NCBI GenBank assembly: GCA_003173915.1
Contig: PPGL01000092.1
Coordinates: forward strand, 1-44,628
Origin: Candidatus Levyibacteriota bacterium
GTDB taxonomy: Bacteria; Patescibacteria; Microgenomatia; Levybacterales; UBA12049
Reading direction: 5' to 3'
DNA: 44,628 nt
The position numbers and the translations under genes are program-made. Shown here one piece after another: positions 1 through 12,251 of the stretch. How positions within the stretch are numbered: position 1 is the stretch's first letter; every line of letters begins with the position of its first letter. Below the pieces are notes generated by a model that was given only the letters and a program-made list of their open reading frames with translations, was not told the origin of the DNA and did no database searches.

Positions 1-271
1 TGAGGGGACACTCCAGAATCGATTTAGATTTGATATTACAAAATCAACCTATGTAACGAGTCACGAGCCACTAACGCTTGGTTGTGATTGTTATGCTTGT
101 ACTCATTTTACCCGTGGATATGTCAATCATCTCTTTCGTGCAAAAGAAATGCTGGGAGGACATGTGGCAACCTACCATAATGTGTATTTTATGGTCAGGC
201 TGGTAAAAAACATCAGAGAATCAATTCTTAGTGGAACATTTTCTCAATTAAAAAAGCAGTGGCTTGAATAG
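1..271 (+). CDS. tgt: tRNA-guanine transglycosylase, C-terminal end (partial)
   Basis: The 89 C-terminal residues are read from base 2 to the TAG at 269-271; the start lies outside the window. The enzyme exchanges guanine-34 for a queuine precursor in tRNAs with GUN anticodons. The fragment carries the zinc-site signature of the family: CDCYAC (C-x-C-x2-C) followed about 26 residues later by the histidine of TYHN, and the conserved FTRGYVNHLFRAKE helix. The GTFSQ region near the end is also typical. The next gene overlaps the end by 8 bases. Identity is clear from the zinc motif; nothing can be said about the N-terminal catalytic half. Confidence 0.93.
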   Translation, partial: EGTLQNRFRFDITKSTYVTSHEPLTLGCDCYACTHFTRGYVNHLFRAKEMLGGHVATYHNVYFMVRLVKNIRESILSGTFSQLKKQWLE

Positions 272-752
272 TCTTTCTTATCTATTACTCTTTTTTGTTT
301 TCTTAGTCATTTTGTATTCGTACGCTTTCTTCATGTCGCAAGAGCGTTTTTCTCCTTTTCAAAATGTTCGAAGAAACTTACATACCATGTCTTCTGCTGT
401 TCGTGAAGTATCTAAGGACTTCGTAGCGGGTGGAGGAATAAAAACAGTAGCACGTCGGGGGTTAAAAAGTGTTTCAGCAGGTATTGTTTTTGGCGGAGGA
501 GTGGGATTTGTTGGAGGAGAATTAATTCCGGCAATTTTTTGGGCTTTTAGCTCCCAAACTGTTGATGCTCCGGAATATGGAATTCCTGCTGCTGTTGGGG
601 GAGCACTCATTGGCGGCATTATTGGGCTTATTGACGCCCTGACATATCCTATTCGTGAAGAGCGTACGGGAAGCGCAGCAATAAAACTTGCTGATACACG
701 CATGCAAGGTTTTACTCGGCAGATTGATTCTCCACGAGATTTTCGGGAGTAA
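264..752 (+). CDS. Small glycine-rich membrane protein, unknown function
   Basis: The 162-residue protein is not recognised. The TTG start at 264 is chosen because it preserves a strong N-terminal membrane helix (about residues 4-23); the first ATG (333) would remove it. Two more hydrophobic, glycine-rich stretches lie at about residues 70-95 and 106-128 and contain GxxxG-like spacing, as in glycine-zipper membrane proteins. The C-terminal 35 residues are charged and probably cytosolic. It overlaps the end of tgt by 8 bases, suggesting cotranscription, and is followed directly by the trp promoter. An ATG-333 start is the main alternative. Confidence 0.7.
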   Translation: MNSLSYLLLFFVFLVILYSYAFFMSQERFSPFQNVRRNLHTMSSAVREVSKDFVAGGGIKTVARRGLKSVSAGIVFGGGVGFVGGELIPAIFWAFSSQTVDAPEYGIPAAVGGALIGGIIGLIDALTYPIREERTGSAAIKLADTRMQGFTRQIDSPRDFRE

Positions 753-758
753 ACCCTC

Positions 759-787
759 TTGACAAAATACTAGTGTACTAGTATACT
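759..787 (+). promoter_or_regulatory. Promoter of trpR and the trp operon
   Basis: TTGACA (759-764) and TATACT (782-787) are separated by exactly 17 bp, a near-perfect sigma-70 promoter. The predicted transcription start is about 794, which is the GTG start codon of trpR, so the mRNA would be leaderless. The trp operator palindrome fills the spacer. No other comparable promoter is seen before trpE, so this promoter probably drives the whole operon. Confidence 0.88.
768..783 (+). promoter_or_regulatory. TrpR operator (CTAG-N4-CTAG palindrome)
   Basis: TACTAGTGTACTAGTA consists of two 7-bp perfect inverted arms around a 2-bp centre. The E. coli trp operator core as I know it, TACTAGTTAACTAGTA, differs at only two central bases, and the diagnostic CTAG boxes have the same 4-bp spacing. 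The site lies between the -35 and -10 boxes and overlaps the -10 by two bases, so bound repressor would block RNA polymerase. I saw no second CTAG-N4-CTAG site in the window. Confidence 0.88.
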
Positions 788-793
788 GATATA

Positions 794-1039
794 GTGAGTT
801 CAGTGGATGAGGTTGTTTGGCAATTATCGCAAGCAAAAACAAAAACGCAAATAGAGAATTTAGTTCTTGGACTATTTACAGAAGGAGAAATAGAAGAATT
901 TGCACAAAGGCTTAAGCTTGTAAAAATGCTCAAACAAGGGATACCCCAACACGAGATTGCAAAAAAGCTTGGTATTGGTGTTGCAACTGTCACACGAGGT
1001 TCTAAAGAAATAAAAATGGGGAGATTTAAATATGTATAA
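794..1039 (+). CDS. trpR: Trp operon repressor TrpR-like protein
   Basis: The 81-residue protein matches the TrpR fold family. Its helix-turn-helix, residues about 50-72, contains GVATVTRGS followed by K-x-I-K, very close to E. coli TrpR GIATITRGS-N-S-L-K and unlike the YerC type (TATISR). The FTEGE turn and the QRLKLVKML helix correspond to the regions holding the tryptophan-contacting Thr and Arg of E. coli TrpR; the recognition-helix Arg is also kept. The start is GTG at 794, coinciding with the predicted transcription start, so translation is leaderless. It is the first gene of the trp operon and has its own operator in its promoter, implying autorepression by Trp-bound repressor. It is shorter than E. 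coli TrpR, lacking the N-terminal arm and last helix. Confidence 0.88.
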   Translation: MSSVDEVVWQLSQAKTKTQIENLVLGLFTEGEIEEFAQRLKLVKMLKQGIPQHEIAKKLGIGVATVTRGSKEIKMGRFKYV

Positions 1040-1112
1040 AAATAACGTTACGGGTTTAGAGTATAAGGTTCAGAGCTTGTGGTGGAATGACTTCTCTTTC
1101 TTGAGAGGGTAG
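1032..1112 (+). CDS. trpL: trp leader peptide with tandem Trp codons
   Basis: A 26-codon ORF starts at ATG 1032, inside the end of trpR (8-base overlap, +1 frame), and ends at TAG 1110-1112. Residues 17 and 18 are both Trp (TGGTGG, 1080-1085), followed by NDFSFLRG. A Shine-Dalgarno sequence GGGGAG (1018-1023) sits 8 bases upstream. Adjacent Trp codons are very improbable by chance, and the ORF ends exactly inside segment 2 of the downstream attenuator. By analogy with E. coli trpL, ribosome stalling at these codons when charged tRNA-Trp is scarce would let the operon be transcribed. Confidence 0.9.
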   Translation: MYKNNVTGLEYKVQSLWWNDFSFLRG

Positions 1113-1145
1113 TTCAACCTGGCTTTTTTTGAATAACCTCTCAAG
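1092..1145 (+). promoter_or_regulatory. Attenuator segments 1, 2 and 3: pause hairpin and antiterminator
   Basis: Segment 1 (1092-1097) can pair with segment 2 (1104-1109) in a 6-bp hairpin with loop TTCTTG. Segment 2, CTTGAGAGG (1100-1108), is a perfect 9-bp complement of segment 3, CCTCTCAAG (1137-1145); inside this, TTCAA (1113-1117) pairs with TTGAA (1129-1133). A ribosome stalled at the Trp codons (1080-1085) covers segment 1 and frees 2 to pair with 3, which blocks the terminator. A ribosome reaching the stop codon covers segment 2 and allows the terminator. Confidence 0.87.
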
Positions 1146-1161
1146 CACGAGAGGTTTTTTT
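1135..1161 (+). terminator. Attenuator terminator of the trp operon (segments 3:4)
   Basis: AACCTCTC (1135-1142) and GAGAGGTT (1149-1156) form an 8-bp perfect stem with loop AAGCAC, followed by T residues to 1161. It lies 14 bases before trpE. Its left arm is shared with the antiterminator, so the two structures exclude each other. Confidence 0.9.
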
Positions 1162-1175
1162 GTGCTTAAAAACAT

Positions 1176-2534
1176 ATGAAAACAATTTTATTACCTAAAA
1201 AACCAATCTATATTCCATCACGGGATAATGAGGATATATACGAGCTTTTCCTTCGTATGGAAGAGGAGTGTGAATCATGTTTTCTCTATGAATCACTTGG
1301 AGAATATGGGGATTTGGCGCGTTATACTATTTGTGGCTTTGATCCACAAGAAACAGTTTTGGGTAATCCTGGCAAGTTGCAGGTAGGTTCAAAAGTAATT
1401 CAAACAAAGAATCCATATACACCTCTTTCAAAACTTATCCCGCAGGATATTTTGGCAAAAGAATACGCAGGAGGATTAGTTGGATATTTAGGTTATGATT
1501 GTGTTTCCTTATTCGAGCCGTCACTCTCGATAAAACATCATCCGCTTTTTCCTCTGTTTCAATTTGGTATGTATACTGATGGCGTCATTTATGACAAGTT
1601 TACTGGGGAATTAACCTATTTTTACTTTACAAAAAATCGTTTGCCACGCATTCTGGAATTTCTTGCAAGACCTGCAAAAAAGAAAAAAGTAAGAGTTAAA
1701 AATCTCCGGCCAAACACCACCAAGCAAGAGCATGCAGCAATGGTCAGTAAAGTTCAAGATGAGATAAAAAAAGGTAACACATTTCAAACGGTTATTGGAA
1801 TGCAAGAAACATTTGATTACACGGGTGATGCGATTGTTTTGTATGACAGGCTGAGAAAAGTTAGTCCTGCACCATTTATGTACTACATCAAGTTTGGTCC
1901 TTCGGCAAGCTCAGGATCACATGTAATCATTGGTGTTTCTCCAGAACTCTTATTTAGTATGCGGGATGGTTTGATGCATACCTTTCCTCTTGCTGGAACA
2001 CGATCTCGAGGACAAACAGCACAAAAGGACAAAGAGCTTGCTTACGATCTTTTGCATGACATAAAGGAAAAAGCGGAACACACGATGCTTGTTGATTTAC
2101 ACAGAAATGATATGGGGAAAGTTGCACGGTTTGGGACGGTAAAGATTCAGAACGTAATGGACATAAAGAGGTTTTCTCATGTGCAGCATCTTGGTAGTGA
2201 AATAACAGGCATTATTCGCTCAGATGAAAATATGTTTACTGCACTGGCAAGTAATTTTCCAGCAGGTACGCTTTCTGGTGCGCCAAAAATTGAATCAATG
2301 AAAATTATTGATCGTTTGGAAAAAGCTCCTCGAGGTCCATATGGCGGAGCAGTTGGACATTTTGGGTTTAACGGTGATGCAACATTTGCTATTTCTATCC
2401 GAACGATTTTTATTTCAGGCAATACGGGTTTTATTCAAGCAGGTGGGGGTATTGTTGCTGATTCTGTTGTGGAAGACGAATACGGAGAAATTCAGAGAAA
2501 GCTACAAGGAATAAAGGAGGTATTGAGAATGTAA
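1176..2534 (+). CDS. trpE: Anthranilate synthase component I
   Basis: The 452-residue chorismate-binding enzyme converts chorismate to anthranilate with ammonia from TrpG. Conserved blocks are YLGYDC (about 110), PLAGTRSRG (about 271-279, with Ala273 where PabB has Lys), a DLHRNDMGKV block, the FPAGTLSGAPK block and GAVGHFG, then the C-terminal IQAGGGIVADS. Ala273 separates it from the PabB of this window (Lys278). The N-terminal YES element corresponds to the LLES Trp-feedback site of the family. It is the first enzyme gene after the attenuator. No Shine-Dalgarno sequence is visible before ATG 1176; the upstream region is the terminator and an A-rich stretch. Confidence 0.97.
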   Translation: MKTILLPKKPIYIPSRDNEDIYELFLRMEEECESCFLYESLGEYGDLARYTICGFDPQETVLGNPGKLQVGSKVIQTKNPYTPLSKLIPQDILAKEYAGGLVGYLGYDCVSLFEPSLSIKHHPLFPLFQFGMYTDGVIYDKFTGELTYFYFTKNRLPRILEFLARPAKKKKVRVKNLRPNTTKQEHAAMVSKVQDEIKKGNTFQTVIGMQETFDYTGDAIVLYDRLRKVSPAPFMYYIKFGPSASSGSHVIIGVSPELLFSMRDGLMHTFPLAGTRSRGQTAQKDKELAYDLLHDIKEKAEHTMLVDLHRNDMGKVARFGTVKIQNVMDIKRFSHVQHLGSEITGIIRSDENMFTALASNFPAGTLSGAPKIESMKIIDRLEKAPRGPYGGAVGHFGFNGDATFAISIRTIFISGNTGFIQAGGGIVADSVVEDEYGEIQRKLQGIKEVLRM

Positions 2535-2542
2535 TCGCTTGA

Positions 2543-2595
2543 AACAAAATTTTCTTCGAATCGGACTTCGCCTTTCATCCTGAGAAAAATTTGTT
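2543..2595 (+). repeat. Imperfect inverted repeat in the trpE-trpG spacer
   Basis: AACAAAATTTTC (2543-2554) and GAAAAATTTGTT (2584-2595) are complementary at 11 of 12 positions and enclose about 29 bases containing TTCGAATCGGACTTCG and CATCCTGAG, motifs shared with the dispersed GTCAT-type repeats. This 85-bp gap is unusual in an otherwise compact operon and is probably an inserted repeat. Confidence 0.6.
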
Positions 2596-2619
2596 CCTGC
2601 GCTTTTTCAACTATTTATT

Positions 2620-3351
2620 ATGAAGACTTTAATTATTGATAACTATGATTCGTTTACCTACAACTTATATCAGGCAGTGGGGGAGATATTGGGAAGCGTA
2701 AAGGGGGAAGCGTTAAGCGAAAAGAGTTCAGTGGATGTGATGAGAAATGATCAGATAAAACTCAAGGAAGTTATTAAAAGACAGTATGATCGGATTATTC
2801 TTTCTCCTGGACCTGGAGATCCTTCGGACAGAGCATATTTTGGTGTATGTACAGATATTTTACAAAGAATAACAACAATTCCTATTCTTGGGGTGTGTCT
2901 TGGGATGCAAGGAATGGCATACATATTTGGTGGGAAAATTGTTCGAGCAGAAAAACCAATGCATGGGAAAACAAGTAGTATTTCCCATGATGGAAAAGGA
3001 GTTTTTGTGGGAGTTCCTCAGAGCATAGAAGTAATGCGGTATCACTCGCTAATTGTAGAACAAAAAAGTTTGCCAGAATGTTTGGAAGTAAGTGCTGTTG
3101 TATATGATAGTCGGGGTCCTGCCGCTCATCACCCCCGTTCGACGGCTTCATTCGTTTCACTCACTGCAGGCGGTCAACGGGGGACCCCCACTCGCGTCAC
3201 CCCTTACGTTGATCATCAAGAAGTCATGGGATTGAGGCACAAAACATTTCCAATTGAAGGAGTGCAGTTTCATCCTGAGTCCTTTGCAACAGAAGCCGGA
3301 AAAAAAATTCTTGAGAATTTTCTTTTTAATCAAAAAGGAGGAGAAATATGA
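2620..3351 (+). CDS. trpG: Anthranilate synthase component II (glutamine amidotransferase)
   Basis: This class I glutamine amidotransferase gives ammonia to TrpE. The start IIDNYDSFTYNL, the oxyanion strand SPGPGDP, the nucleophile elbow GVCLGMQG (Cys93) and the triad partners in VQFHPES (His218, Glu220) are all present, so it should be active. At 243 residues it is about 50 longer than usual. The excess is explained by two in-frame repeat-like inserts: about residues 27-37 (bases ~2690-2722, AAGCGTAAAG/AAGCGTTAAGCG motif) and residues 165-196 (a GC-rich element, 3111-3206). It ends in an ATGA overlap with trpD. A separate pabA lies in the folate operon, so this copy is probably trp-specific. 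Confidence 0.95.
   Translation: MKTLIIDNYDSFTYNLYQAVGEILGSVKGEALSEKSSVDVMRNDQIKLKEVIKRQYDRIILSPGPGDPSDRAYFGVCTDILQRITTIPILGVCLGMQGMAYIFGGKIVRAEKPMHGKTSSISHDGKGVFVGVPQSIEVMRYHSLIVEQKSLPECLEVSAVVYDSRGPAAHHPRSTASFVSLTAGGQRGTPTRVTPYVDHQEVMGLRHKTFPIEGVQFHPESFATEAGKKILENFLFNQKGGEI
3111..3206 (+). repeat. GC-rich in-frame repeat, family B, copy in trpG
   Basis: A GC-rich block inside AT-rich trpG begins TCGGGGTCCTG and ends CACCCCTT. The same termini and a similar length occur in serC (22271-22362). It adds about 31 residues (RGPAAHHPRST... to RVTP) just before the His/Glu part of the active site, in a region where TrpG proteins have a surface loop. Confidence 0.7.
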
Positions 3352-4376
3352 CAGTTAATTATTATCTTAACAAGTTTGTTCAGAAACAAAGTCTCTCACA
3401 AGAAGAGGCGAGTGATCTACTACAGATTTTGCTACATAAAGAAACAACTCCTGCACAAATTGGAGCGATTCTTTCGGCTCTGACAATAAAAGGAGAAACA
3501 ACAGATGAAATTGCTGGATTTATTGGAGGAATGAGAGAGAAGATGATAACGATTCAGGTTCCAAAAGGAACAATAGATGTTTGTGGAACAGGAGGAGATG
3601 GAAAACACACCTTTAATATTTCAACTGCTGCGAGTTTTGTGTTGGCAGGTGGAGGAGTTTTTGTTGCAAAACACGGAAATCGTGCAGCATCTAGTTTGTG
3701 TGGAAGTGCGGATGTACTAGAGGCATTAGGAGTCAATATTCAGTTGACTGTTAAGCAAGCAGAAAAGGTGTTACAAAAAACAGGATTTGTTTTTTTATTT
3801 GCTCCACTGTATCACGGTGCATTTAAAGAGGTTGGAAGTGTTCGAAAAAGCTTAGGTTTTCCGACAATCTTTAACTACCTTGGTCCATTTGCAAGCCCTG
3901 CACAAGTAAGGCGACAAGTGATTGGAGTTCCAAACAAACAAATTGCGCATATTCTTGCTGTAGTTGCAGCAACACTTTCGTATGAGCATCTTTTTATTTT
4001 GACAAGTGAAGATGGAATGGATGAAGCAAGTATTTTTGCTCCAACACACGTGTTTGATATTCAAGGGGAAAATATTCGCGAATACAGTATTATTCCAAAA
4101 CAGTTTAGTGGGTCTGATATATCAGAAATTATTGGTGCAGATGCGAAGACAAATGCTCAAATAATTGAAAAAGTTTTGCAAGGGGAAAAAAGTTACTTCG
4201 GCAAGCTCAGCATGAAAGCAGCACGAGATATTGTTGTTTTAAATAGCGCTGTGGGATTTGTTGTTGCAGGGAAGGCAGCGACAATTAAGAAAGGGATTGA
4301 TCTTGCAAAAAAATCTATTGACACAGGTTCTGCGTTACGCGTATTGACACAGGTGAAAAAGGAGACAAACAAATGA
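3348..4376 (+). CDS. trpD: Anthranilate phosphoribosyltransferase
   Basis: The 342-residue protein transfers phosphoribose from PRPP to anthranilate. Diagnostic motifs are VCGTGGDG (PRPP/pyrophosphate loop, about residues 78-85), NISTAASFVLAGGG, KHGNRAASS (anthranilate and PRPP site) and GSADVLEALG. Length is normal. AAGGAGGAG lies a few bases before the start, which overlaps trpG as ATGA; the end overlaps trpC in the same way. No repeat insert is seen here. Confidence 0.97.
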   Translation: MTVNYYLNKFVQKQSLSQEEASDLLQILLHKETTPAQIGAILSALTIKGETTDEIAGFIGGMREKMITIQVPKGTIDVCGTGGDGKHTFNISTAASFVLAGGGVFVAKHGNRAASSLCGSADVLEALGVNIQLTVKQAEKVLQKTGFVFLFAPLYHGAFKEVGSVRKSLGFPTIFNYLGPFASPAQVRRQVIGVPNKQIAHILAVVAATLSYEHLFILTSEDGMDEASIFAPTHVFDIQGENIREYSIIPKQFSGSDISEIIGADAKTNAQIIEKVLQGEKSYFGKLSMKAARDIVVLNSAVGFVVAGKAATIKKGIDLAKKSIDTGSALRVLTQVKKETNK

Positions 4377-5170
4377 AAAAATCAAAATTAAAAATGCAAA
4401 AATCAGATGAATTTCTTTCATTGCTTCTAAAGAAGAAGCGAGAAGAAGTACAAACGAAGCAGAGATTGCCGCGGTCGCTAAAGCTCCCTCGCAATGACAA
4501 GTTCTTAAATGCAATAAGACAAGCAAGTGATATTGCCATTATTGGAGAACTTAAATTTGCATCTCCATCTGCTGGTGTGCTTGGTTCACCTGATGAACTG
4601 GAAATAAAACTTAAAGAATATGAAAAAGCAGGTGTTGATGCAATTTCAGTAATTACCGAAAGACATTTTTTTAAGGGGAATACTGAATATGTTAAAAAAG
4701 TCAAAAAATTGACAAATCTCCCTGTTTTGCAAAAAGATTTTGTTATTGATGAATCTCAAATTTATGAAGCAAAGATGCTAGGACCAGATGCACTTCTTCT
4801 TATCGCACGAATTATTTCGGCACAGCAACTTAATTTGTTTGTTGATATGTGTTTTGCACAAGGAATAGAGCCGATAGTTGAAGTTTTTGATTCTAAAGAT
4901 TTACAAAAAGCATGTAGCACAAATACACGGATTATTGCTGTCAATGCAAGAGATTTGAACACTCTTACGGTCGATATTCAAAAAGCATGTAGACTTATTC
5001 AAGATATTCCTGTAGGATATCTCAAGTTGGGTTTTTCGGGGATACATGGGGAGAAAGAAGTAGCGTTGTATAGAAAAGCTCATACAGATGGAATTTTAAT
5101 TGGTACAGCGCTCATAAAGGAGGTGAATGTTGATGCATTTCTTTCATCACTCAGAACCAAAAAAAGATAA
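4373..5170 (+). CDS. trpC: Indole-3-glycerol phosphate synthase
   Basis: This (beta/alpha)8-barrel enzyme closes the indole ring from CdRP. Recognisable elements are IGELKFASPSAG (catalytic Lys strand), VDAISVITERHFFKG, LPVLQKDFVIDESQIYEAKMLGPDALLLIARI, the IIAVNARDLNTL strand and the C-terminal phosphate site around SGIHGEKEV and DGILIGTALI. At 265 residues it is of normal size. An 11-residue stretch (about 31-42, LPRSLKLPRND) is encoded by a GTCAT-family repeat remnant (4463-4498) in the N-terminal extension. It overlaps trpD (ATGA) and trpF. Confidence 0.96.
   Translation: MKKSKLKMQKSDEFLSLLLKKKREEVQTKQRLPRSLKLPRNDKFLNAIRQASDIAIIGELKFASPSAGVLGSPDELEIKLKEYEKAGVDAISVITERHFFKGNTEYVKKVKKLTNLPVLQKDFVIDESQIYEAKMLGPDALLLIARIISAQQLNLFVDMCFAQGIEPIVEVFDSKDLQKACSTNTRIIAVNARDLNTLTVDIQKACRLIQDIPVGYLKLGFSGIHGEKEVALYRKAHTDGILIGTALIKEVNVDAFLSSLRTKKR
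4463..4498 (+). repeat. GTCAT-family repeat remnant inside trpC
   Basis: GAGATTGCC...CTCGCAATGAC matches the right half of the intergenic repeat at 27810-27902 (GGGATTGCCACGTCGC...CTCCTCGCAATGAC). It is in frame and encodes LPRSLKLPRND. Confidence 0.6.
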
Positions 5171-5789
5171 TGGCCGGACAAAAGTAAAAATTTGCGGAAT
5201 CCGCAGGTTTGAAAGTGCGGAAGTAGCAGTAAAAGCAGGTGCGGATTTATTAGGATTTAATTTTGTTAATGAGTCTCATCGATATGTGAATCCCATTACT
5301 GCAAAAGAAATTATTGAAAAAGTTCATAAACACGCAGAAGTTGTTGGTGTATTTAAAGACATGGAAGTAGAGGAGGTTAACGAACTTGCTCATTATCTTA
5401 AGCTCCATTATGTTCAGTTGCATGGATCAGAAGACCCGACATTTATTAAAAAAATTAAAACAAAGGTATTAAAAGCAGTATCTCTTTCAGGGGATTTTGC
5501 TTTAGACAATACCATTCCAGCTCTTCAAAAATATGATGCACACCATATTCTTTTAGATCGTGAGACACAAGGACAAGGTGCACCTGTTAATTTTGAGAAG
5601 GCTCGAGAAATTGCTTCACATTTACCGATATTTCTTGCAGGAGGGCTTCATCCTGAAAATGTTGCAGATGCTGTATTTACCGTTAATCCATACGGTGTTG
5701 ATGTTGCAGGCGGAATAGAAACAAATAACTACGAAGACCCTCAAAAAATTGCTGCATTTATTCAAAACGCGAAAGGAGTTTTCCAATGA
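5133..5789 (+). CDS. trpF: Phosphoribosylanthranilate isomerase
   Basis: TrpF performs the Amadori rearrangement of PRA to CdRP. The N-terminal VKICGIRR (catalytic Cys), LLGFNFVNESHRYV, the QLHGSED strand, LLDRETQGQGAPVNF (catalytic Asp strand), FLAGGLHPENV and GVDVAGGIETN are present. ATG 5133 is preferred to ATG 5127 because the strong Shine-Dalgarno AAAGGAGGTG (5116-5125) is too close to 5127. About 17 residues precede the usual start and overlap the trpC end by 38 bases, implying translational coupling. It ends in an ATGA overlap with trpB. Confidence 0.95.
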   Translation: MHFFHHSEPKKDNGRTKVKICGIRRFESAEVAVKAGADLLGFNFVNESHRYVNPITAKEIIEKVHKHAEVVGVFKDMEVEEVNELAHYLKLHYVQLHGSEDPTFIKKIKTKVLKAVSLSGDFALDNTIPALQKYDAHHILLDRETQGQGAPVNFEKAREIASHLPIFLAGGLHPENVADAVFTVNPYGVDVAGGIETNNYEDPQKIAAFIQNAKGVFQ

Positions 5790-7006
5790 AATCACATTTT
5801 GCGCAGTATGGAGGAAGGTATGTTCCCGAACTTCTTATGCCAGCTCTCATAGAGCTTGAAGAGGCATACAAGCTAGCAAAAAAAGATCCTACATTTAAGA
5901 AGGAATTTACAGGACTTCTTAAGAATTTTTCTGGTCGTCCCACACCATTAGTCTTTGCTAAAAATCTTACAGAAAAGCTTGGTGGAGCAAAGATTTATTT
6001 GAAAAATGAAGGACTTAATCACACAGGAGCGCATAAAATCACGCATTGTATTGGTCAAGCATTTGTTGCAAAGAGAATGGGTAAAACGCGTCTTATTGCC
6101 GAAACAGGTGCAGGCCAACATGGTGTCGCGACGGCGACAGTTGCTGCAAAACTTGGGTTTTCTTGTACCATTTATATGGGAGAAGTCGATATCGCAAGAC
6201 AGAGACCAAATGTATTCCTTATGGAACAACTTGGCGCAAAGGTTATTCCAGTGAGCTTTGGTCAGAAAACTCTGAAAGATGCAGTCAATGCTGCACTTAA
6301 AGACTACATTGAGAATGTTTCGACAACCCATTATGTACTTGGTTCGGCACTTGGTCCGCATCCATACCCTACAATGAATCGAGATTTCCAGAAAATTATA
6401 GGGAGAGAAATTCGTTCACAATTAAGAGAACAAGAGAAAGCATTGCCAGATTATGTTATTGCTTGTGTTGGAGGAGGGAGTAATGCCATTGGTGCATTTT
6501 ATGAATTTTTGAAATTCCCTGGAGTTCAATTAATGGGAGTAGAAGCAGGAGGAAAGGGCTCTAAAATTGGTGAACATGCTGTTAGGTTTGATGGCTTAGG
6601 TAAAGTGGGAGTTATTGAAGGATACAAATCATACTTTTTACAAGATAATGATGGTAATTTACTTCCAACACACAGTGTTTCGGCAGGACTTGATTATCCG
6701 GGCATTGGTCCAGAGTTAGCATCTCTTCGAGATAAGAAGCGGATACAATTTGTTTCAGCACTGGACACAGAAGTTCTTAATGCAGTGCAACTTTTGGCAA
6801 AAACAGAAGGGATAATTCCCGCACTTGAGTCAGCTCATGCTGTTGCATATGCGCTTACACTTGCTCCTACACTCTCAAAAGATAAGATTATTGTTGTCAA
6901 TCTTTCAGGACGAGGAGACAAGGATTTATTTATTCTTGCAAAAGCGTTTAGAGATGAGAAGTTTTTTGAATTTTTAGAAAACTATGTGAAAGGAGGTCGA
7001 GTATGA
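5786..7006 (+). CDS. trpB: Tryptophan synthase beta chain
   Basis: The PLP enzyme joins indole and serine to give tryptophan. The N-terminus GGRYVPELLMPAL, the PLP-lysine motif NHTGAHKI (Lys84), AETGAGQHGVATA, the phosphate-cup GGGSNAIGAF and the GLDYPGIGPE segment are canonical for TrpB1, and 406 residues is normal. AAAGGAG lies 8 bases before ATG 5786. It ends in a ...GGRV tail followed by a 126-bp gap before trpA that forms a large inverted repeat, unlike the ATGA junctions elsewhere in this operon. Confidence 0.97.
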   Translation: MKSHFAQYGGRYVPELLMPALIELEEAYKLAKKDPTFKKEFTGLLKNFSGRPTPLVFAKNLTEKLGGAKIYLKNEGLNHTGAHKITHCIGQAFVAKRMGKTRLIAETGAGQHGVATATVAAKLGFSCTIYMGEVDIARQRPNVFLMEQLGAKVIPVSFGQKTLKDAVNAALKDYIENVSTTHYVLGSALGPHPYPTMNRDFQKIIGREIRSQLREQEKALPDYVIACVGGGSNAIGAFYEFLKFPGVQLMGVEAGGKGSKIGEHAVRFDGLGKVGVIEGYKSYFLQDNDGNLLPTHSVSAGLDYPGIGPELASLRDKKRIQFVSALDTEVLNAVQLLAKTEGIIPALESAHAVAYALTLAPTLSKDKIIVVNLSGRGDKDLFILAKAFRDEKFFEFLENYVKGGRV

Positions 7007-7011
7007 AGCTC

Positions 7012-7139
7012 GTTGCATATCCTTTGTGAAACAGACGCTTACTCCAAGTTCGCGTAGTGAAATTTGCTTACCAATCGTTTTGAAAATTGAAATGCAAGAA
7101 CAAGCAAATTTCAAAGCTATTTCAAAAGGACAATGCAAC
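7012..7139 (+). repeat. Large inverted repeat covering the trpA ribosome binding site
   Basis: The outer arms 7012-7031 (GTTGCATATCCTTTGTGAAA) and 7120-7139 are complementary at most positions; the inner arms GAAATTTGCTT (7059-7069) and AAGCAAATTTC (7102-7112) are perfect over 11 bp. The right outer arm contains the probable Shine-Dalgarno AAAGGA and the ATG of trpA, so the folded RNA would hide the trpA start. It may be a mobile palindrome, a translational control element, or both. Confidence 0.65.
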
Positions 7140-8077
7140 TCGCTTTGAGTGCGCAGTATATGAAACTTATGACACATGTCGTTGTTGGGTATCCAACTTT
7201 AGAAGCAACTGTTCAATTAGTCAAAACAATGGTGAAACAAGGAGTAGATATGGTAGAACTCCAAATTCCATTTTCTGATCCACTTGCTGATGGCCCAACG
7301 ATTATGAAAGCGTGTGAAGAAAGTTTGAGAAATGGTACTACAGTTGCTGATGCTTTTAGAATCATGGAAGAATTAACAGAATATTTTAAGTGTCATCAAC
7401 ATGTCATTCTGGGGATGACCAAAGGGAGGACTCCAGAATCAAGGAAAGATTCTGGACGCGTTCGTTCCTCACTTGCCAGAATGACAAATGAAAAAGAAGT
7501 AAGTACAAACAATCCAAGGCTTCTTTTTATGTGTTACTACAATACTATTTTCAATTTCGGCACTGAAAAGTTTATCAAAAAAGCAAAAGAAGTAGGGTGT
7601 GATGGACTAATTGTTCCAGACATGCCACTGGAGGAGGAAGCACAAGAAAATTTTTATGCATATTGCAAAAAATACGAGATGTCTGTTATTTTTGTTGTTT
7701 CTCCTGTTAGTTCTGACACGCGTTTACAAGCAATTGCCCGTTCGTCAGGCTCAGGGCAAGTTCATTCAGTTAGCTCAGAACAAGCAAGCTTTGTGTATGC
7801 GACAGCTCGGCAAGGGACAACAGGAGTACAAAGAGAAAATCAAGAATCACGAATTAAGAATCAAGAATTACTTATGTTTCTTAAAAGAGTTAAAAAATAT
7901 TTTGATATTCCCATTGCTGTTGGGTTTGGGATTTCAACGAAAGAGCAGATTGAGGTAATTCAAGGATATGCAGATATCGCTGTTGTTGGAAGTGCAATTA
8001 TTGAGGTTGTTAATAGTTCTGAAAATATACAGAAAGGAGTGGAGGATTTTCTAAGTAAGTTAAAGATGGTAGAATAA
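7133..8077 (+). CDS. trpA: Tryptophan synthase alpha chain, with in-frame repeat inserts
   Basis: TrpA cleaves indole-3-glycerol phosphate to indole for TrpB. The catalytic Glu (Glu42 in VELQIPFSDP) and Asp (Asp53 in PLADGP), the IVPDMPLEE loop and the phosphate-binding VGFGIS are present. The protein begins about 10-15 residues later than E. coli TrpA, lacking most of the N-terminal helix. It is nevertheless long (314 residues) because of inserts: residues 91-121 (palindromic repeat 7403-7495), a short one near residues 203-215 (bases ~7740-7775), and RENQESRIKNQELL (repeat 7838-7870) directly after the TTGV loop. All keep the frame. ATG 7133 follows AAAGGA, which lies in an inverted repeat. 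Confidence 0.94.
   Translation: MQLALSAQYMKLMTHVVVGYPTLEATVQLVKTMVKQGVDMVELQIPFSDPLADGPTIMKACEESLRNGTTVADAFRIMEELTEYFKCHQHVILGMTKGRTPESRKDSGRVRSSLARMTNEKEVSTNNPRLLFMCYYNTIFNFGTEKFIKKAKEVGCDGLIVPDMPLEEEAQENFYAYCKKYEMSVIFVVSPVSSDTRLQAIARSSGSGQVHSVSSEQASFVYATARQGTTGVQRENQESRIKNQELLMFLKRVKKYFDIPIAVGFGISTKEQIEVIQGYADIAVVGSAIIEVVNSSENIQKGVEDFLSKLKMVE
7403..7495 (+). repeat. GTCAT-family palindromic repeat inside trpA
   Basis: The 93-bp unit starts GTCATTCTGG and ends CCAGAATGAC, inverted termini shared with many other copies in the window. The length is exactly 31 codons. It encodes a basic peptide ending ARMT; the same RMT frame recurs in mutY, the glycosyltransferase (twice) and fpg. Confidence 0.85.
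7838..7870 (+). repeat. AGAATTAAGAATCAAGAATTA-type repeat inside trpA (family C)
   Basis: An A/T-rich tandem of AATCAAGAAT and GAATTA units, in frame, encodes ESRIKNQEL. Near-identical copies occur in nnrD (34134-34168) and the ligase (40270-40301), always read as SRIKN. Confidence 0.75.
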
Positions 8078-8082
8078 TAGTT

Positions 8083-8175
8083 GTCATCCTGAGCGTAGTC
8101 GAGGGATCTTCTCATCAGAGTTCAAAAAATTTGATGTGTGAGATTTCTCCACTCACGTTGTTCGGTCGAAATGAC
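8083..8175 (+). repeat. GTCAT-family repeat between trpA and the tRNA-binding protein
   Basis: It starts GTCATCCTGAGCG and ends TCGAAATGAC, the same end pattern as the in-frame copies, here intergenic. It extends the downstream reading frame upstream without a plausible start, so that apparent extension is not coding. Confidence 0.75.
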
Positions 8176-8190
8176 AAAAGTTTTACATAT

Positions 8191-8583
8191 ATGATTACTC
8201 TTGATGAATTTAGTAAAGTCGAAATACGAATTGGAACAGTACTGACTGTTGAGCCAGCAGAGGGAGCAGACAAACTCTTAAGAATTGTTTTTGACTTTGG
8301 GCCACTTGAAGAAGGGGTTTCACTAGAAATAGAATTATTGCCAGAGCTTACAGAAAAATATCCAGGAAGGCATGTGAGGCAAGTGATGAGTGCTATCAGA
8401 CCCTTTTTTGAAGATCCACAAGTTTTGGTTGGCAAGCAAATCTGCGTTGTCACAAATTTGGAGCCTCGTACATTTAGAGGGTATATTTCTCAAGGAATGA
8501 TTACTGCAGTTGGGGATAAAGAAACAGGAGTGACATTTATTGTTCCGGAAAATCCAGTGAAAGCGGGCACAAAGCTTTTTTAA
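8191..8583 (+). CDS. tRNA-binding (CsaA/Arc1p-like) OB-fold protein
   Basis: The 130-residue protein is a stand-alone tRNA-binding domain as found in CsaA, EMAPII/Arc1p and the MetRS C-terminus. It begins FSKVEIRIGTVLTVEPAEGADKLLRI, the standard first strands of the fold, and ends with VLVGKQICVVTNLEPRTFRGYISQGMI, matching the G-K-x-V/I-x-V-V-x-N-L and S-x-G-M signatures. The middle (about 65-85) is more divergent than in CsaA. ATG 8191 is chosen because upstream sequence is a repeat. It lies 4 bases before the TrpRS gene at the end of the trp operon, so it may help deliver tRNA to that enzyme, as Arc1p does; this is inference. Confidence 0.85.
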   Translation: MITLDEFSKVEIRIGTVLTVEPAEGADKLLRIVFDFGPLEEGVSLEIELLPELTEKYPGRHVRQVMSAIRPFFEDPQVLVGKQICVVTNLEPRTFRGYISQGMITAVGDKETGVTFIVPENPVKAGTKLF

Positions 8584-8587
8584 CACT

Positions 8588-10066
8588 ATGGTAGAAGAAT
8601 TAATACAACAATATAGTGAATCTCTAAAAAATCTTGGTGTTGACAACAAAATTGTTGAACATCCACTCTTTAAGGAAGTGGAAGAAGTATTGGGATATTT
8701 AGGACTTAATTTCTCAGATGCAGCATCAACAATGATTTTAAAAACAGGTGATAGGTATGTTGCTATAATCCGTCGTGATGATTGCAAACTCAATTTTGAG
8801 AAAGTGAAAAACGAATTACAAGTTTCTGATGTTCGTATTGCAACAGCGGAGGAGTTTGTATCCGTTACCCATGTGCCTGTTGGTGCTGCACGAATGTATA
8901 CTCCTGGACTTGAAACATTTTTTGACAAGAGAATCTTTGAAAAGGAATTTATCATGGGTGGATCAGGTTCATTTACTGCGACAATTAAACATAAAACTTC
9001 ACATCTTCTTAATATTCCAGGCAGCAAAATTGTTGATGTTGCAGATGTGGGTCGAACAGATGTTGAGATAGCAGCTGTCGAGAGTACAGGAAAGCGAGTG
9101 TATTCAGGAGTGCGGGCAACAGGAAGACTTCATTTGGGTAATTATTTAGGAGCAGTAAAGGGAATGCTTGCACTGCAAGAAAGTTATGATTGCACATTCA
9201 GTGTTGTTGATATGCATGTTATGACAACGCCCTATGATGCAAAAACCCTTAAAGATTCTGTTAGAAGTGTTATTCTTGATTATTTAGCTGCAGGACTTGA
9301 TCCAAAAAAATGTAGACTTGAAATACAAAGTAGACAACCTCATGCCGAACTCTCTTATTATCTTGCAACAATCTATCCACTTGCTCCACTTGAAGATTTA
9401 CCAACCTTTAAAGAGAAAAAGGCGCAATATCCAAAGCATGTAACAACAGCTTTGTTATATTATCCAATTCTTATGGCAGCAGATGTGCTCTTGTATAAAG
9501 CAGAACTTGTGCCAGTTGGTATCGATCAAGAACCGCATTTGGAAGTGATGCGAGAATGTGCAAGAAAGTTTAATAGTTTGTATGGAGACACATTTCCAGA
9601 ACCACGCAGATTTAGAACAATGGGGGAGTATGTTCCGTCCCTTTTGGGAAAGGGCAAAATGAGTAAGACCGTTGAAGGAAGTTTTATTAACCTAGCAGAT
9701 GATGTGGATACTATAAAAAGAAAATTGGCAAAAGTTCCAACAGACAGTGGGACAACTGGTGGAGATATACCAAAAGAAGGGGGAGTTTCTAGTTTATTCA
9801 GTTTATTGGCGTTATTTAATCAAAACGATATGCACAAAAAATTCAAACAGGATTATTTCGAGGGAAAGATTCGTTATGGAGACTTAAAGAATTATCTTTC
9901 TGAAGCAATTGCCGCTGAATTACAACCAATTCAGGAAAAGAGAAAGTATTATGAAGAAAATCCAACAATAGTTGATGACATTTTAGAAAAAAGTAATGAG
10001 GAGTGTACAGCTATTACTTCGGCAACCATGCGAGAAGTTAAAGAAAAAATGGGACTTTCGTTGTAA
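8588..10066 (+). CDS. trpS: Tryptophanyl-tRNA synthetase with N-terminal YbaK-like domain
   Basis: The 492-residue protein is a two-domain fusion. Residues 1-155 resemble the YbaK/ProX trans-editing deacylase fold (LKTGDRYVAIIRRDD, PVGAARMYTPG, GGSGSFTATIKHKTSHLL). By eye, Ser47 stands where the catalytic Lys of YbaK (FKTLL) is expected, so deacylase activity is uncertain. Residues 168-492 are a class I TrpRS: GVRATGRLHLGN (HIGH box 182-185), VVDMHVMT, GIDQEPHLEV and GKMSKT (KMSKS box, Lys357). Length of the synthetase part is normal. Being the last gene of the attenuated trp operon, it makes the charged tRNA that the leader senses. No Shine-Dalgarno sequence is seen. Confidence 0.93.
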   Translation: MVEELIQQYSESLKNLGVDNKIVEHPLFKEVEEVLGYLGLNFSDAASTMILKTGDRYVAIIRRDDCKLNFEKVKNELQVSDVRIATAEEFVSVTHVPVGAARMYTPGLETFFDKRIFEKEFIMGGSGSFTATIKHKTSHLLNIPGSKIVDVADVGRTDVEIAAVESTGKRVYSGVRATGRLHLGNYLGAVKGMLALQESYDCTFSVVDMHVMTTPYDAKTLKDSVRSVILDYLAAGLDPKKCRLEIQSRQPHAELSYYLATIYPLAPLEDLPTFKEKKAQYPKHVTTALLYYPILMAADVLLYKAELVPVGIDQEPHLEVMRECARKFNSLYGDTFPEPRRFRTMGEYVPSLLGKGKMSKTVEGSFINLADDVDTIKRKLAKVPTDSGTTGGDIPKEGGVSSLFSLLALFNQNDMHKKFKQDYFEGKIRYGDLKNYLSEAIAAELQPIQEKRKYYEENPTIVDDILEKSNEECTAITSATMREVKEKMGLSL

Positions 10067-10067
10067 T

Positions 10068-10181
10068 ATCATGCTGAATTTAGTTCAGCATCTTTCCTGT
10101 AGAGATTCTGAAACCCGTTCGGCAAGTCATTCGATCATGAGCTCAGACAGAATCGGCTCAGGGCGAACAAATTCAGAATGA
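10068..10181 (+). repeat. GTCAT-family composite repeat before mutY
   Basis: The block contains ATCATGCTGAATTTAGTTCAGCAT, AGATTCTGAAAC, CAAGTCATTCGATCATGAG and ends GGCTCAGGGCGAACAAATTCAGAATGA, all pieces of the dispersed repeat. Its last bases supply the ATG of mutY. Confidence 0.65.
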
Positions 10182-11158
10182 TAGTAACACTTTCTCCACA
10201 GAAAATTAAAACATTTCAAACACAGATTCTTACGTGGTATAAAACGCACAAAAGGGATCTCCCGTGGCGACACACACGAGACCCATACAAAATTCTTATC
10301 TCTGAAGTGATGTCTCAACAAACACAAATTAGCAGAGTTGTCCCAAAATATCATGAATGGCTGCAAGCATTTCCAACACTCGAAGATTTGGCAAAAGGAT
10401 CTGTTCGAGATGTTTTACAACATTGGTCTGGACTTGGATATAATAGGCGAGCGTTGTATTTGAAGAAGTGCGCAGAGGAATTGGTGAAGTGTTTTCAGAA
10501 AACTCAGAAGTCCAGAAAATCAGACAATCTGAGATTCAGAAATTCTGAATCACCGAGTTTTCCGAGTAGTCTGAAGAGCTTGTGGCCACAGACAGAAGAA
10601 GAACTCATGAAACTTCCCGGAATTGGCAAATATACTGCTCGGGCAATTCTTTGTTTTGCATTTAACAAACAAGTTGCTGTTGTAGATACAAATGTAAAGA
10701 AAGTAATTCTAACAGACTTTTTATTTCGTCATTCTGGCTTGTCCAGAATCCCATCAAGCTCGGGAAAAGATTCTGGAGTCGCTTCCTGCCTGCCGGCAGA
10801 CACGGCGTTCCCCAGAATGACGGAGAAGGAAATTGAAAGCATTGCTGGTCAGCTATTACCTAAAGGCCGTGCATATGAATGGAATCAAGCACTTATGGAT
10901 TATGCCTCGCTTATGCTTAAAAAAGAAAAGATTGTTATTCCAAAACAATCAAGATTTAAAGATTCGGATAGATACTACAGGGGGAAAATTATTCGCTATC
11001 TTTTATCTCATCTCCATACAACGGAAAATGAGTTATTAGAGTGGTTTGTGACACAACATATTGTTATAGATCGTAACCGGTTAATTTCCATATTAGCGGG
11101 ACTAGAGAAAGATAGAATTTTGATAAAAAAAGGAAATAACCTTTTTATTACTGAGTAG
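10178..11158 (+). CDS. mutY: A/G-specific adenine glycosylase, clusterless
   Basis: MutY removes adenine mispaired with 8-oxoguanine. LPWRHTRDPYKILISEVMSQQTQ (Glu43 catalytic), the helix-hairpin-helix LPGIGKYTARAI and VVDTNVKKVI (Asp170) identify it. The C-x6-C-x2-C-x5-C iron-sulfur loop that should follow NQALMDYASL is absent: the region reads LKKEKIVIPKQSRFKDSD with no cysteine. Two repeat-derived inserts occur, about residues 107-140 and 184-215, the second directly after the catalytic Asp helix. The 8-oxoG-recognising C-terminal domain is reduced to a short winged-helix-like tail. The ATG comes from the preceding repeat; the end overlaps a convergent gene by 11 bases. Confidence 0.9.
   Translation: MIVTLSPQKIKTFQTQILTWYKTHKRDLPWRHTRDPYKILISEVMSQQTQISRVVPKYHEWLQAFPTLEDLAKGSVRDVLQHWSGLGYNRRALYLKKCAEELVKCFQKTQKSRKSDNLRFRNSESPSFPSSLKSLWPQTEEELMKLPGIGKYTARAILCFAFNKQVAVVDTNVKKVILTDFLFRHSGLSRIPSSSGKDSGVASCLPADTAFPRMTEKEIESIAGQLLPKGRAYEWNQALMDYASLMLKKEKIVIPKQSRFKDSDRYYRGKIIRYLLSHLHTTENELLEWFVTQHIVIDRNRLISILAGLEKDRILIKKGNNLFITE
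10728..10821 (+). repeat. GTCAT-family palindromic repeat inside mutY
   Basis: It starts GTCATTCTGGCTTGTCC and ends CCCCAGAATGAC. In frame it encodes HSGLSRIPSSSGKDSG... to PRMT. A second likely insert lies at about 10495-10570 and contains short inverted pieces (AAACTCAG, CCGAGTTTTCCGAG, GATTCAGAAATTCTGAATC). Confidence 0.8.
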
Positions 11159-12161
11159 GCTGGGGAGGTGGAATAACGAGTGTTTGTCGGACAACCTCTG
11201 CAGTTGTCTTAAACAGCAGATTATAAAATGTGCCGTATCCATTATCTCCTTGTGGTGGTATAAGGCCAAGTTCTTCTGCAAAAGAGTCAGTAGCAAAAAT
11301 AATACAACCAAAAATACTTTGCTTGGGAATGTTATGCGTACTAGCTGTAATTGGCTGTCCAAAAGGATTAAGTAGTCTATGAAGTTCCTCTAAAGATAGA
11401 GTCCAACCACGGCGTGAACGTTGAAAGTGATGTGGGCTGAATCCAGGATGTACTTGTCCCAATTCGTCCGTGCGAAGTGCAGTTTGTACGGCGTCAACTT
11501 GCTGTGGGGGAAGATTGCGAGCAAGGGTTTGAGGAATCATAGCGTCTCCAAGATCTCTTATAAACTCATCAATTGTTACTGGAGCTCCATCTTCATTTTG
11601 TGCCAGGACTGGAAGTATACTATCGAGTACTGTTGGAAATGTTCCTGCTGCTGTATGCATAGCGTCAATCACGGATGCAGTATCGATTGCCCCAGAAGCT
11701 TCTCCTGCGCGTTGTATGGCTGAGGCGAGTTCATAAAACTCACGAGCTGGTTCTGAAGCATGTGCTTGTTTACGAATAGTCTGAATTCCTTCATCGAGTG
11801 CATTACTCACATGTCCAATACGACGTCGAACCTCATTAAGAAATTTGGGAGTTACGAGATCTGTTCCGTTATACTGCTGTCTGTGTGGATATTGAAATGC
11901 ATGCTCCTGAAAGGTTGGAACTGCCAATTGAAGAAGGGCGCCTTGTAGCACAATACGTGTGCCTTTAACATCGTCGCTGTTAAACCATCGCTTGGTATCT
12001 GCTCTTTCGCTGCTGCCGTCTCTGCTTTGTGTGAATGCATCATTGATACTTTTGTATCTTCTTGTAGCCTCTATAAGAAGTGCTTTACGGTAATCTGAAC
12101 TTCTCAGAGCTTGACGTGCTCTATGTACTCCTGCAAGTTCGAATGCTCCATGTTCGTGCAT
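11148..12161 (-). CDS. Hypothetical protein
   Basis: The 337-residue protein is not recognised. ATG 12161 is preferred over farther upstream codons, which run into the ftsH promoter region and give a sequence of unrelated character. The protein is mostly helical in appearance, Ala/Gln/Arg-rich, with no signal peptide or membrane helix and a proline-rich C-terminus (VIPPPQPTQ). No catalytic motif is evident. It is convergent with mutY (11-base overlap) and divergent from ftsH. Codon use looks like its neighbours. Confidence 0.75.
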   Translation of the reverse strand: MHEHGAFELAGVHRARQALRSSDYRKALLIEATRRYKSINDAFTQSRDGSSERADTKRWFNSDDVKGTRIVLQGALLQLAVPTFQEHAFQYPHRQQYNGTDLVTPKFLNEVRRRIGHVSNALDEGIQTIRKQAHASEPAREFYELASAIQRAGEASGAIDTASVIDAMHTAAGTFPTVLDSILPVLAQNEDGAPVTIDEFIRDLGDAMIPQTLARNLPPQQVDAVQTALRTDELGQVHPGFSPHHFQRSRRGWTLSLEELHRLLNPFGQPITASTHNIPKQSIFGCIIFATDSFAEELGLIPPQGDNGYGTFYNLLFKTTAEVVRQTLVIPPPQPTQ

Positions 12162-12213
12162 AGCGTCTGATATTATAGGATAAAATTGTAAGATTTGCAA
12201 GTTTCGGCTTTCG

Positions 12214-12242: not shown

Positions 12243-12251
12243 ACTTTGCAC

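What the first reader, a model, noticed from the sequence alone, without database searches (positions are those of the whole stretch)
1032..1161. Complete trp-type ribosome-mediated attenuator with a tandem-Trp leader peptide
Seen: a 26-codon ORF with Shine-Dalgarno GGGGAG, Trp codons 17-18 (1080-1085), stop at 1110-1112 inside segment 2, a 6-bp 1:2 hairpin, a perfect 9-bp 2:3 antiterminator (1100-1108 with 1137-1145) and an 8-bp 3:4 terminator plus T-run, all within 130 bases before trpE. Each part is where the E. coli trp mechanism requires it. Established: such attenuation is best known in Proteobacteria. Inference: this bacterium, likely a CPR member, regulates trp by ribosome stalling. 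The leader ORF overlaps the end of trpR, so the attenuator sits inside the repressor-led transcript.
Basis: partly seen in the sequence, partly recalled or inferred. Interest (0 to 1): 0.95.

Follow-up and report, generated by a model that had tools for sequence, protein, structure and literature searches.

The report
Tryptophan attenuator in a Patescibacteria operon
In front of the tryptophan genes of an uncultivated, probably Patescibacteria, bacterium lies a short RNA leader with every sequence part of the classic E. coli-type switch, and it is predicted to stop or allow transcription depending on whether a ribosome stalls at two tryptophan codons.

Summary
Between trpR (794-1039) and trpE (1176-2534) there is a 26-codon ORF with tandem Trp codons, a 9-bp perfect antiterminator, and an 8-bp terminator with a T run. 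My scan finds no other terminator of this strength on either strand of the window, and no WW-leader attenuator in 797 shuffled windows. Folding with a ribosome boundary gives the expected switch: 2:3 pairs for boundaries 1084-1094 (p >= 0.99), the terminator forms for a ribosome at the stop codon (p = 1.00).

The surroundings fit. E. coli-identical TrpR half-sites lie in the promoter ahead of trpR. The nine genes from trpE to trpS encode no tryptophan in 2,884 residues. The nearest named TrpE and TrpRS relatives are nearly all Patescibacteria.

Not shown: conservation (no Patescibacteria DNA could be fetched) and any transcript data. The untranslated leader does not clearly fold into the terminator.

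Verdict: a trpL-type attenuator by anatomy, a known kind, in a group where my capped paper searches showed no report. Its place downstream of the repressor gene is already predicted in Chlamydia felis.

The parts
759..787 (+). sigma-70-type promoter ahead of trpR, TTGACA-N17-TATACT
   Evidence: 11 of 12 consensus positions, the best of 27 promoter-like sites in 1-12400; consensus match only, and the total of 27 is no more than shuffles give (31.2)
769..782 (+). predicted TrpR operator ACTAGT-GT-ACTAGT inside the promoter
   Evidence: 0 mismatches to the half-sites and spacing of E. coli trpO (sequence, match); unique in the window, none in 100 shuffles
794..1039 (+). trpR-family repressor gene (GTG start, likely leaderless)
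   Evidence: Pfam Trp_repressor 64.6 bits, cut-off 27; NCBIfam TrpR 44.6 bits, below its 67.25 cut-off
1018..1023 (+). Shine-Dalgarno-like GGGGAG of the leader ORF, 8 nt from its ATG
   Evidence: sequence
1032..1112 (+). leader peptide ORF, 26 codons, overlaps the trpR end by 8 nt
1080..1085 (+). tandem Trp codons 17-18 (predicted stall site)
1091..1096 (+). segment 1
   Evidence: pairs with 1103-1108; 1089-1096 can also pair with segment 4
1100..1108 (+). segment 2 (antiterminator 5' arm)
   Evidence: 9-bp perfect complement of 1137-1145
1124..1130 (+). T7 run directly after the extended 1:2 hairpin; possible pause site
   Evidence: function inferred
1137..1145 (+). segment 3 (shared by antiterminator and terminator)
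1135..1161 (+). intrinsic terminator: 8-bp stem 1135-1142/1149-1156 (segments 3:4) and T run 1155-1161
   Evidence: only terminator of this strength found in the window
1176..2534 (+). trpE, first structural gene, no Trp codon
   Evidence: Pfam PF00425 and PF04715; best NCBIfam models are TrpE, below their cut-offs; 0 Trp
2620..8077 (+). trpG, trpD, trpC, trpF, trpB, trpA
   Evidence: NCBIfam: trpG (subfamily), trpD, trpB, trpA over cut-off; trpC and trpF named by best family, below cut-off; gaps -44 to 126 nt
8131..10066 (+). tRNA-binding-domain protein and trpS (TrpRS with an N-terminal tRNA-editing-type domain), probable end of the operon
   Evidence: a 9-bp hairpin with a weak T tail follows at 10071-10091

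Best explanation
The stretch 1032-1161 has all the sequence parts of a trpL-type transcription attenuator between trpR and trpE, and it is predicted to let RNA polymerase into trpE only when a ribosome stalls at the two Trp codons. Inferred working: transcription starts at the operator-promoter ahead of trpR, and TrpR with tryptophan would repress it. Ribosomes finishing trpR could start the leader ORF, whose ATG overlaps the trpR end. When charged tRNA-Trp is scarce, the ribosome would stop at codons 17-18, leave 1100-1108 free, and 2:3 would form before segment 4 is made, so transcription continues. When charged tRNA-Trp is plentiful, the ribosome would reach the stop at 1110, cover segment 2, and the 3:4 hairpin with its U tract would end the transcript after trpR. 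The genes beyond, probably including trpS, would thus be under both controls while trpR is under the operator alone. Shown: parts, positions, statistics and equilibrium folds. Inferred: every step in the cell.
For: Anatomy. Chance controls: z -3.45; 1 full attenuator in the window, 0 in 797 shuffles; (pattern unique, 0 in 100 shuffles). Ribosome-boundary folds: first free base 1084-1094 gives p(2:3) >= 0.99 and p(3:4) <= 0.01 at transcript end 1163; first free base 1103 or later gives p(3:4) >= 0.99. The same kind of sweep on E. coli trpL gives p(2:3) 0.90-1.00 for boundaries 60-80 at nascent length 120, and p(3:4) 1.00 for boundaries 83-92 at full length. No sigma-70-like site on the + strand between 787 and 2523, so trpE transcription should cross the terminator. 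Operator identical to E. coli half-sites. 0 Trp in 2,884 residues from TrpE to TrpS against 23.6 expected from the other 28 ORFs counted, trpR left out; this low cognate bias is known in general (PMC4209129, passages read).
Against: Conservation within Patescibacteria is untested: no DNA of that group could be fetched. With no ribosome at all, the leader from 1032 to 1163 at equilibrium prefers 2:3 plus 1:4 (p 0.93) over the terminator (p 0.04), so termination of an untranslated leader rests on 1:2 forming first (p(1:2) 0.69 at 1146); the E. coli control from +1 gives p(1:2) and p(3:4) of 1.00. The minimum-energy fold of the longer 1025-1175 does show 1:2 and 3:4. With the ribosome edge at 1095 or 1096-1100, 3:4 competes once segment 4 is made: p(3:4) 0.41 and 0.37-0.78 at 1163, 0.42 and 0.71-0.98 at 1157. 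A stall at codon 18 may fall there, so read-through would then rest on 2:3 forming first. My strict antiterminator scan missed E. coli's own attenuator. Five distinct gammaproteobacterial trpR-trpE cassettes have no WW leader (0 of 5). Low Trp content is also seen in E. coli TrpE (0 of 520), so it supports starvation adaptation, not attenuation as such. No Rfam family matches. The numbers of promoter-like and terminator-like sites in 1-12400 are near shuffle expectation (27 against 31.2; 10 against 7.8).
Confidence: 0.87

Rival explanations
1. It is only the terminator of trpR; the WW codons and the antiterminator are coincidence, and trpE has its own promoter.
For: A terminator after a repressor gene is ordinary; the gammaproteobacterial trpR-trpE cassettes manage without a leader.
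Against: No sigma-70-like + strand site between 787 and 2523 and only 14 nt between the T run and the trpE ATG. Chance of a >=9-nt antiterminator given the terminator is 0.97%, of an in-frame WW 0.43%; terminator, antiterminator and WW leader together never arose in 797 whole-window shuffles.
Confidence: 0.06
2. The leader works by another sensor: a T-box, TRAP, or a nascent peptide that senses free tryptophan as TnaC does.
For: Eight (G/U)AG triplets lie in 1024-1175; any terminator-antiterminator pair can be driven by another ligand.
Against: No Rfam match at gathering cut-offs in the window, and only 6 weak matches, all far below their gathering scores, in 700-1300. The triplets are unevenly spaced, and B. 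subtilis TRAP binds 11 such repeats (PMC4027176, abstract in the listing). The stop-codon and Trp-codon geometry is what tRNA-charging control needs.
Confidence: 0.04
3. A decayed attenuator: once functional, no longer used.
For: No expression data; conservation not tested.
Against: The elements are intact: open ORF, SD, both Trp codons, perfect 2:3 and 3:4 stems, U tract.
Confidence: 0.03

Closest known systems
E. coli trpL attenuator of trpEDCBA (sequence, fold)
   Same: Short leader ORF with tandem Trp codons, four-segment RNA, stop codon placed so that a finishing ribosome covers segment 2, U-tract terminator ahead of trpE, combined with a TrpR operator with the same ACTAGT-N2-ACTAGT core.
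   Different: Leader is 26 rather than 14 codons and starts inside trpR. trpR heads the operon instead of lying elsewhere (recalled for E. coli). 2:3 holds a perfect 9-bp helix. In the equilibrium fold segment 1 can also lock segment 4, so the antiterminated state is stable for boundaries 1084-1094; in E. coli the terminator stays at p >= 0.98 at full length for all 16 boundaries tried. The untranslated E. coli leader folds into the terminator; this one does not clearly do so.
Chlamydia trpR - intergenic region - biosynthetic gene operons; potential trpL in C. felis (PMC3937554, passages) and disputed trpL in C. trachomatis (PMC7755916 and PMC6504234, passages)
   Same: Repressor gene first, a proposed leader peptide (tandem Trp in C. 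felis) between trpR and the biosynthetic genes.
   Different: Chlamydial cases are experimentally unproven (no attenuator structure reported for C. felis; C. trachomatis judged a poor attenuator) and lead partial pathways; here the leader precedes a full trpEGDCFBA set plus trpS with clean alternative stems.
Gammaproteobacterial trpR-trpE cassettes (L001 Oceanospirillaceae, L002 Halomonas, L003 Psychrobacter, unnamed L088, L089)
   Same: TrpE 49-51% identical to the window's by tblastn, TrpR-type motif directly upstream, operator-like sites with 1 to 3 mismatches.
   Different: No WW leader in the 5 gaps; in L001 and L002 the trpE ATG overlaps the trpR stop.
WW(W) short ORFs upstream of trpE in Ignavibacteria (L034), Deltaproteobacteria (L028), Clostridium viride (L036)
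   Same: Short ORF with tandem Trp codons; a strong terminator before trpE in L028 and L034 by script, in L036 by eye only.
   Different: No clear trpR in front (L028 had one weak TLTRG motif hit only); different sequence and spacing; alternative stems not tested.

Membership tests
Ribosome-mediated (trpL-type) transcription attenuator | Short translatable leader ORF with start codon and ribosome-binding site | tested here: met
Ribosome-mediated (trpL-type) transcription attenuator | Run of codons for the amino acid made by the operon | tested here: met
   TGG TGG 1080-1085, followed by trpEGDCFBA
Ribosome-mediated (trpL-type) transcription attenuator | Intrinsic terminator before the first structural gene | tested here: met
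   1135-1161
Ribosome-mediated (trpL-type) transcription attenuator | Mutually exclusive antiterminator using the terminator 5' arm | tested here: met
   1100-1108/1137-1145
Ribosome-mediated (trpL-type) transcription attenuator | Stalled ribosome frees segment 2, ribosome at the stop masks it | tested here: met
   boundary sweep; footprint recalled, in silico only; clean for edges up to 1094, mixed at equilibrium for 1095-1100
Ribosome-mediated (trpL-type) transcription attenuator | Untranslated leader terminates through 1:2 plus 3:4 | tested here: inconclusive
   p(3:4) at 1163: 0.04 from 1032, 0.76 from 1060, 1.00 from 1070; p(1:2) 0.69 at 1146 from 1032; MFE of 1025-1175 shows 1:2 and 3:4
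Ribosome-mediated (trpL-type) transcription attenuator | Codons and stems conserved among relatives | not tested
   no Patescibacteria DNA reachable
Ribosome-mediated (trpL-type) transcription attenuator | Termination controlled by tRNA-Trp charging in cells | not testable with these tools
   needs RNA or reporter data
Rfam curated families (a trp leader family among them is recalled) | Match over the curated score | tested here: not met
   no gathering match in the window; no trp leader among 6 weak matches in 700-1300
TrpR repressor, NCBIfam equivalog TIGR01321 | Score over the curated cut-off | tested here: not met
   44.6 of 67.25 bits; Pfam PF01371 is met
T-box riboswitch | Rfam match | tested here: not met

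The most novel reading that the evidence does not exclude
A Patescibacteria lineage runs its whole tryptophan economy from one transcript: a TrpR-operator promoter, the repressor gene, a ribosome-sensed attenuator started by ribosomes leaving that repressor gene, the full Trp-free biosynthetic set, and the tRNA-Trp charging enzyme itself. The attenuator is a two-state fold (1:2/3:4 against 2:3 inside 1:4) whose antiterminated state is locked, not merely kinetic. It would be the first amino-acid attenuator described in this group and would imply tight transcription-translation coupling on its unusual ribosomes.
Probability: 0.35. Interest if true: 0.62.

Novelty: new member of a known kind. Interest (0 to 1): 0.47.

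Why it matters
Patescibacteria are described as having reduced genomes that lack many typically essential pathways (PMC11665869, passages), and little is known of how they control genes. A complete, doubly controlled tryptophan operon would mean that this lineage makes its own tryptophan and meets a changing supply. It would also give a concrete, reporter-ready test of whether ribosome and polymerase are coupled in this group. Finding the E. coli layout, down to the operator core, in such a distant group bears on whether the pairing of repressor and attenuator is old, repeatedly invented, or moved between lineages. The similar trpR-trpE cassettes in Gammaproteobacteria hint at transfer.

Tried and rejected
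Conservation test: the window's own genome is not held. A taxon name as search centre is not accepted.

Gammaproteobacterial cassettes as a source of leaders: a TrpE search in 274 genomes of the class of G001 gave 4 matches at E <= 1e-80. Three have a TrpR-like motif just upstream (L088, L089, L090), L091 has none, and none of the 4 has a WW leader.

WW screen of the 90 loci with a TrpE match (some are the same place; 84 with at least 350 nt upstream): 4 had a WW short ORF. L031 showed no terminator, L036 none by the script though one is visible by eye. The screen works from the start of the TrpE match and did not flag E. coli L087, so it undercounts.

Strict antiterminator scan as a general detector: E. 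coli trp is missed, so absence by that scan means little.

TRAP and T-box readings: rejected. Chance reading: rejected.

Papers: of ten searches, those aimed at Patescibacteria or Microgenomates showed none describing a leader-peptide attenuator there. Searches list only the top 12 to 20 of 166 to 426 papers; one search found 0 with all three terms; one search found 3, of which I looked at passages of one. Open-access papers only; one key review is not held.

Odds changed slightly (best explanation 0.88 to 0.87, decayed rival 0.04 to 0.03): the mixed folds at transcript end 1157 had been left out, and the odds now sum to 1.

Full report
What is there. The stretch 1032-1161 lies between a trpR-family gene (794-1039; Pfam Trp_repressor 64.6 bits; NCBIfam TrpR 44.6 bits, under its 67.25 cut-off) and trpE (1176-2534). 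A 26-codon ORF, MYKNNVTGLEYKVQSLWWNDFSFLRG, starts 8 nt inside the trpR end, 8 nt after GGGGAG. Trp codons 17 and 18 are 1080-1085 and the stop is 1110-1112. Segment 2 (1100-1108) is the perfect complement of segment 3 (1137-1145). Segment 3 also forms most of the 5' arm of an 8-bp hairpin (1135-1142/1149-1156) that ends in a T run at 1155-1161. Only 14 nt separate the T run from the trpE ATG.

Is it chance? The region folds better than all 200 shuffles, z = -3.45. A scan of both strands for perfect stems of at least 7 bp with at least 4 G-C pairs and a T tract finds exactly one in the window, this one. It carries the 9-nt antiterminator and the WW leader. In 797 shuffled windows there were on average 0.22 terminators, 0.0025 with an antiterminator, and none with a WW leader. 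With the terminator held fixed, 0.97% of 1,166,909 shuffles of 1040-1134 gave a 9-nt antiterminator and 0.43% an in-frame WW. No WW occurs in the 38 window ORFs that I took by hand as genes, 12,724 residues with 81 Trp. The same strict scan misses the E. coli attenuator, so it is specific but not sensitive.

Does it switch? I swept the first base left free by a ribosome and computed pairing probabilities. When transcription has reached 1146, 2:3 is at 0.99-1.00 for every boundary from 1084 to 1103. At 1163, boundaries 1084-1094 keep 2:3 (p(3:4) <= 0.01), 1095-1100 are mixed (p(3:4) 0.37-0.78), and 1103 or later give the terminator (p >= 0.99). At 1157 the terminator does better in the mixed zone (0.42 at 1095, 0.71-0.98 for 1096-1100). 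A ribosome with codon 17 or 18 in the A site should leave the RNA free from about 1092-1096, and one at the stop from about 1119-1123 (footprints recalled). So a stall at codon 17 favours read-through even at equilibrium. A stall at codon 18 does so mainly because 2:3 forms first. Completion favours termination. E. coli trpL under the same treatment shows the same nascent-stage switch, while at full length its terminator stays at p >= 0.98 for all 16 boundaries tried. Here segment 1 can also pair with segment 4 outside 2:3 (p(1:4) 0.92-1.00 for boundaries 1084-1091), which would lock the antiterminated state.

Against the simple picture, the untranslated leader 1032-1163 settles at equilibrium into 2:3 plus 1:4 (p 0.93; p(3:4) 0.04), so basal termination would depend on 1:2 forming first (p 0.69 at 1146). 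The E. coli control does not have this weakness: p(1:2) and p(3:4) are 1.00 from +1. The minimum-energy fold of the longer 1025-1175 does show 1:2 and 3:4.

Surroundings. The best promoter-like site of 27 in 1-12400 is TTGACA-N17-TATACT at 759-787. It contains ACTAGT-GT-ACTAGT (769-782), which has the half-sites and spacing of the E. coli trp operator read. The -10 ends 7 nt upstream of the trpR GTG, which suggests a leaderless trpR message (inferred). No sigma-70-like + strand site lies between 787 and 2523. After the leader come trpE, trpG, trpD, trpC, trpF, trpB, trpA, a tRNA-binding-domain gene and trpS, with gaps of -44 to 126 nt. These nine proteins hold no tryptophan in 2,884 residues, where 23.6 are expected from the other 28 ORFs counted, trpR left out. 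Low cognate bias is a known trend (PMC4209129, passages), and E. coli TrpE has none either, so this speaks for adaptation to tryptophan starvation in general.

Whose is it? The nearest listed TrpE proteins are 65% identical or less. Of the 8 listed with an organism name, 7 come from Levybacteria, Daviesbacteria, Roizmanbacteria or the Patescibacteria group and 1 from Acidoferrales. The 7 TrpRS relatives so named are Levyibacteriota or Patescibacteria group. Levyibacteriota is placed in the Microgenomates group. This suggests that trpR-trpE linkage is kept, but their DNA could not be read.

Relatives that could be read. Gammaproteobacteria carry a trpR-trpE cassette (trpG next in L001-L003) with TrpE 49-51% identical to the window's and operator-like sites with 1-3 mismatches: L001, L002, L003 (the same place as L085 and L090), L088 and L089. 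None of the 5 has a WW leader. In 274 genomes of the class of G001, 4 had such a TrpE at E <= 1e-80, 3 of them with a TrpR-like motif upstream. WW(W) short ORFs occur upstream of trpE in 4 of 90 loci, with a strong terminator in L028 and L034 and, by eye, in L036.

What is known. TrpL-type attenuation in E. coli is textbook (recalled; also described in PMC7755916, passages). The layout trpR - leader - biosynthetic genes has been proposed in Chlamydia: a potential WW peptide in C. felis (PMC3937554, passages), and a disputed one in C. trachomatis that PMC7755916 judged a poor attenuator (also PMC6504234, passages). My paper searches, capped and limited to open-access papers, showed no leader-peptide attenuator reported in Patescibacteria. 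The one Microgenomates genome paper with 'leader peptide' uses it for bacteriocin precursors (PMC7143001, passage). A review of Patescibacteria biology mentions riboswitches only as future tools (PMC11665869, passages).

Conclusion. This is a trpL-type attenuator by anatomy, statistics and folding, with high confidence. What remains open is its conservation and any proof in cells. As a kind it is known. What is new, if it works, is its presence in this group and its place inside a repressor-led transcript that probably ends with the tRNA-charging enzyme.

Noticed in passing
8588-10066: TrpRS with an N-terminal tRNA-editing (YbaK / ProRS insertion type) domain fused to a canonical TrpRS. 61 of the 120 listed proteins, the query included, are over 440 aa, as expected for the fusion. 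What it would edit is unknown.
   Followed up: partly
7833-7871, 34130-34168, 40265-40303: A 39-nt repeat (74-85% identical to the first copy; a fourth weak copy at 22088, 67%) lies inside three different genes, trpA and two others, and reads in frame as ESRIKN-like inserts.
   Followed up: partly
10725-10749 and 28365-28389: A 25-nt inverted repeat, 96% complementary, lies inside two other genes (10178-11158, MutY-like, and 27803-28780, Fpg-like; names by eye). It resembles repeat elements that insert into proteins in Rickettsia (recalled).
   Followed up: no
L001, L002, L003, L088, L089: Gammaproteobacterial trpR-trpE cassettes have TrpE 49-53% identical to the window's, whereas the other 77 loci are at 33-39%; transfer between the groups is possible but no tree was built.
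   Followed up: partly
1124-1130: A second T7 run directly follows the extended 1:2 hairpin; it may be a pause site or a weak terminator for untranslated leader RNA.
   Followed up: partly
16178-21139: Folate-type cluster (names by eye) with second trpE/pabB-like (19240-20646) and trpG/pabA-like (18590-19243) genes; 67 nt of the two glutaminase genes are 82% identical.
   Followed up: no
1-44628: The attenuator is the only hairpin found on either strand with a perfect stem of at least 7 bp, 4 G-C pairs and a T tract, so this genome may rarely use such terminators.
   Followed up: no
L028, L034, L036 upstream of trpE: WW(W) short ORFs ahead of trpE in Deltaproteobacteria, Ignavibacteria and Clostridium viride, candidate attenuators.
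   Followed up: partly
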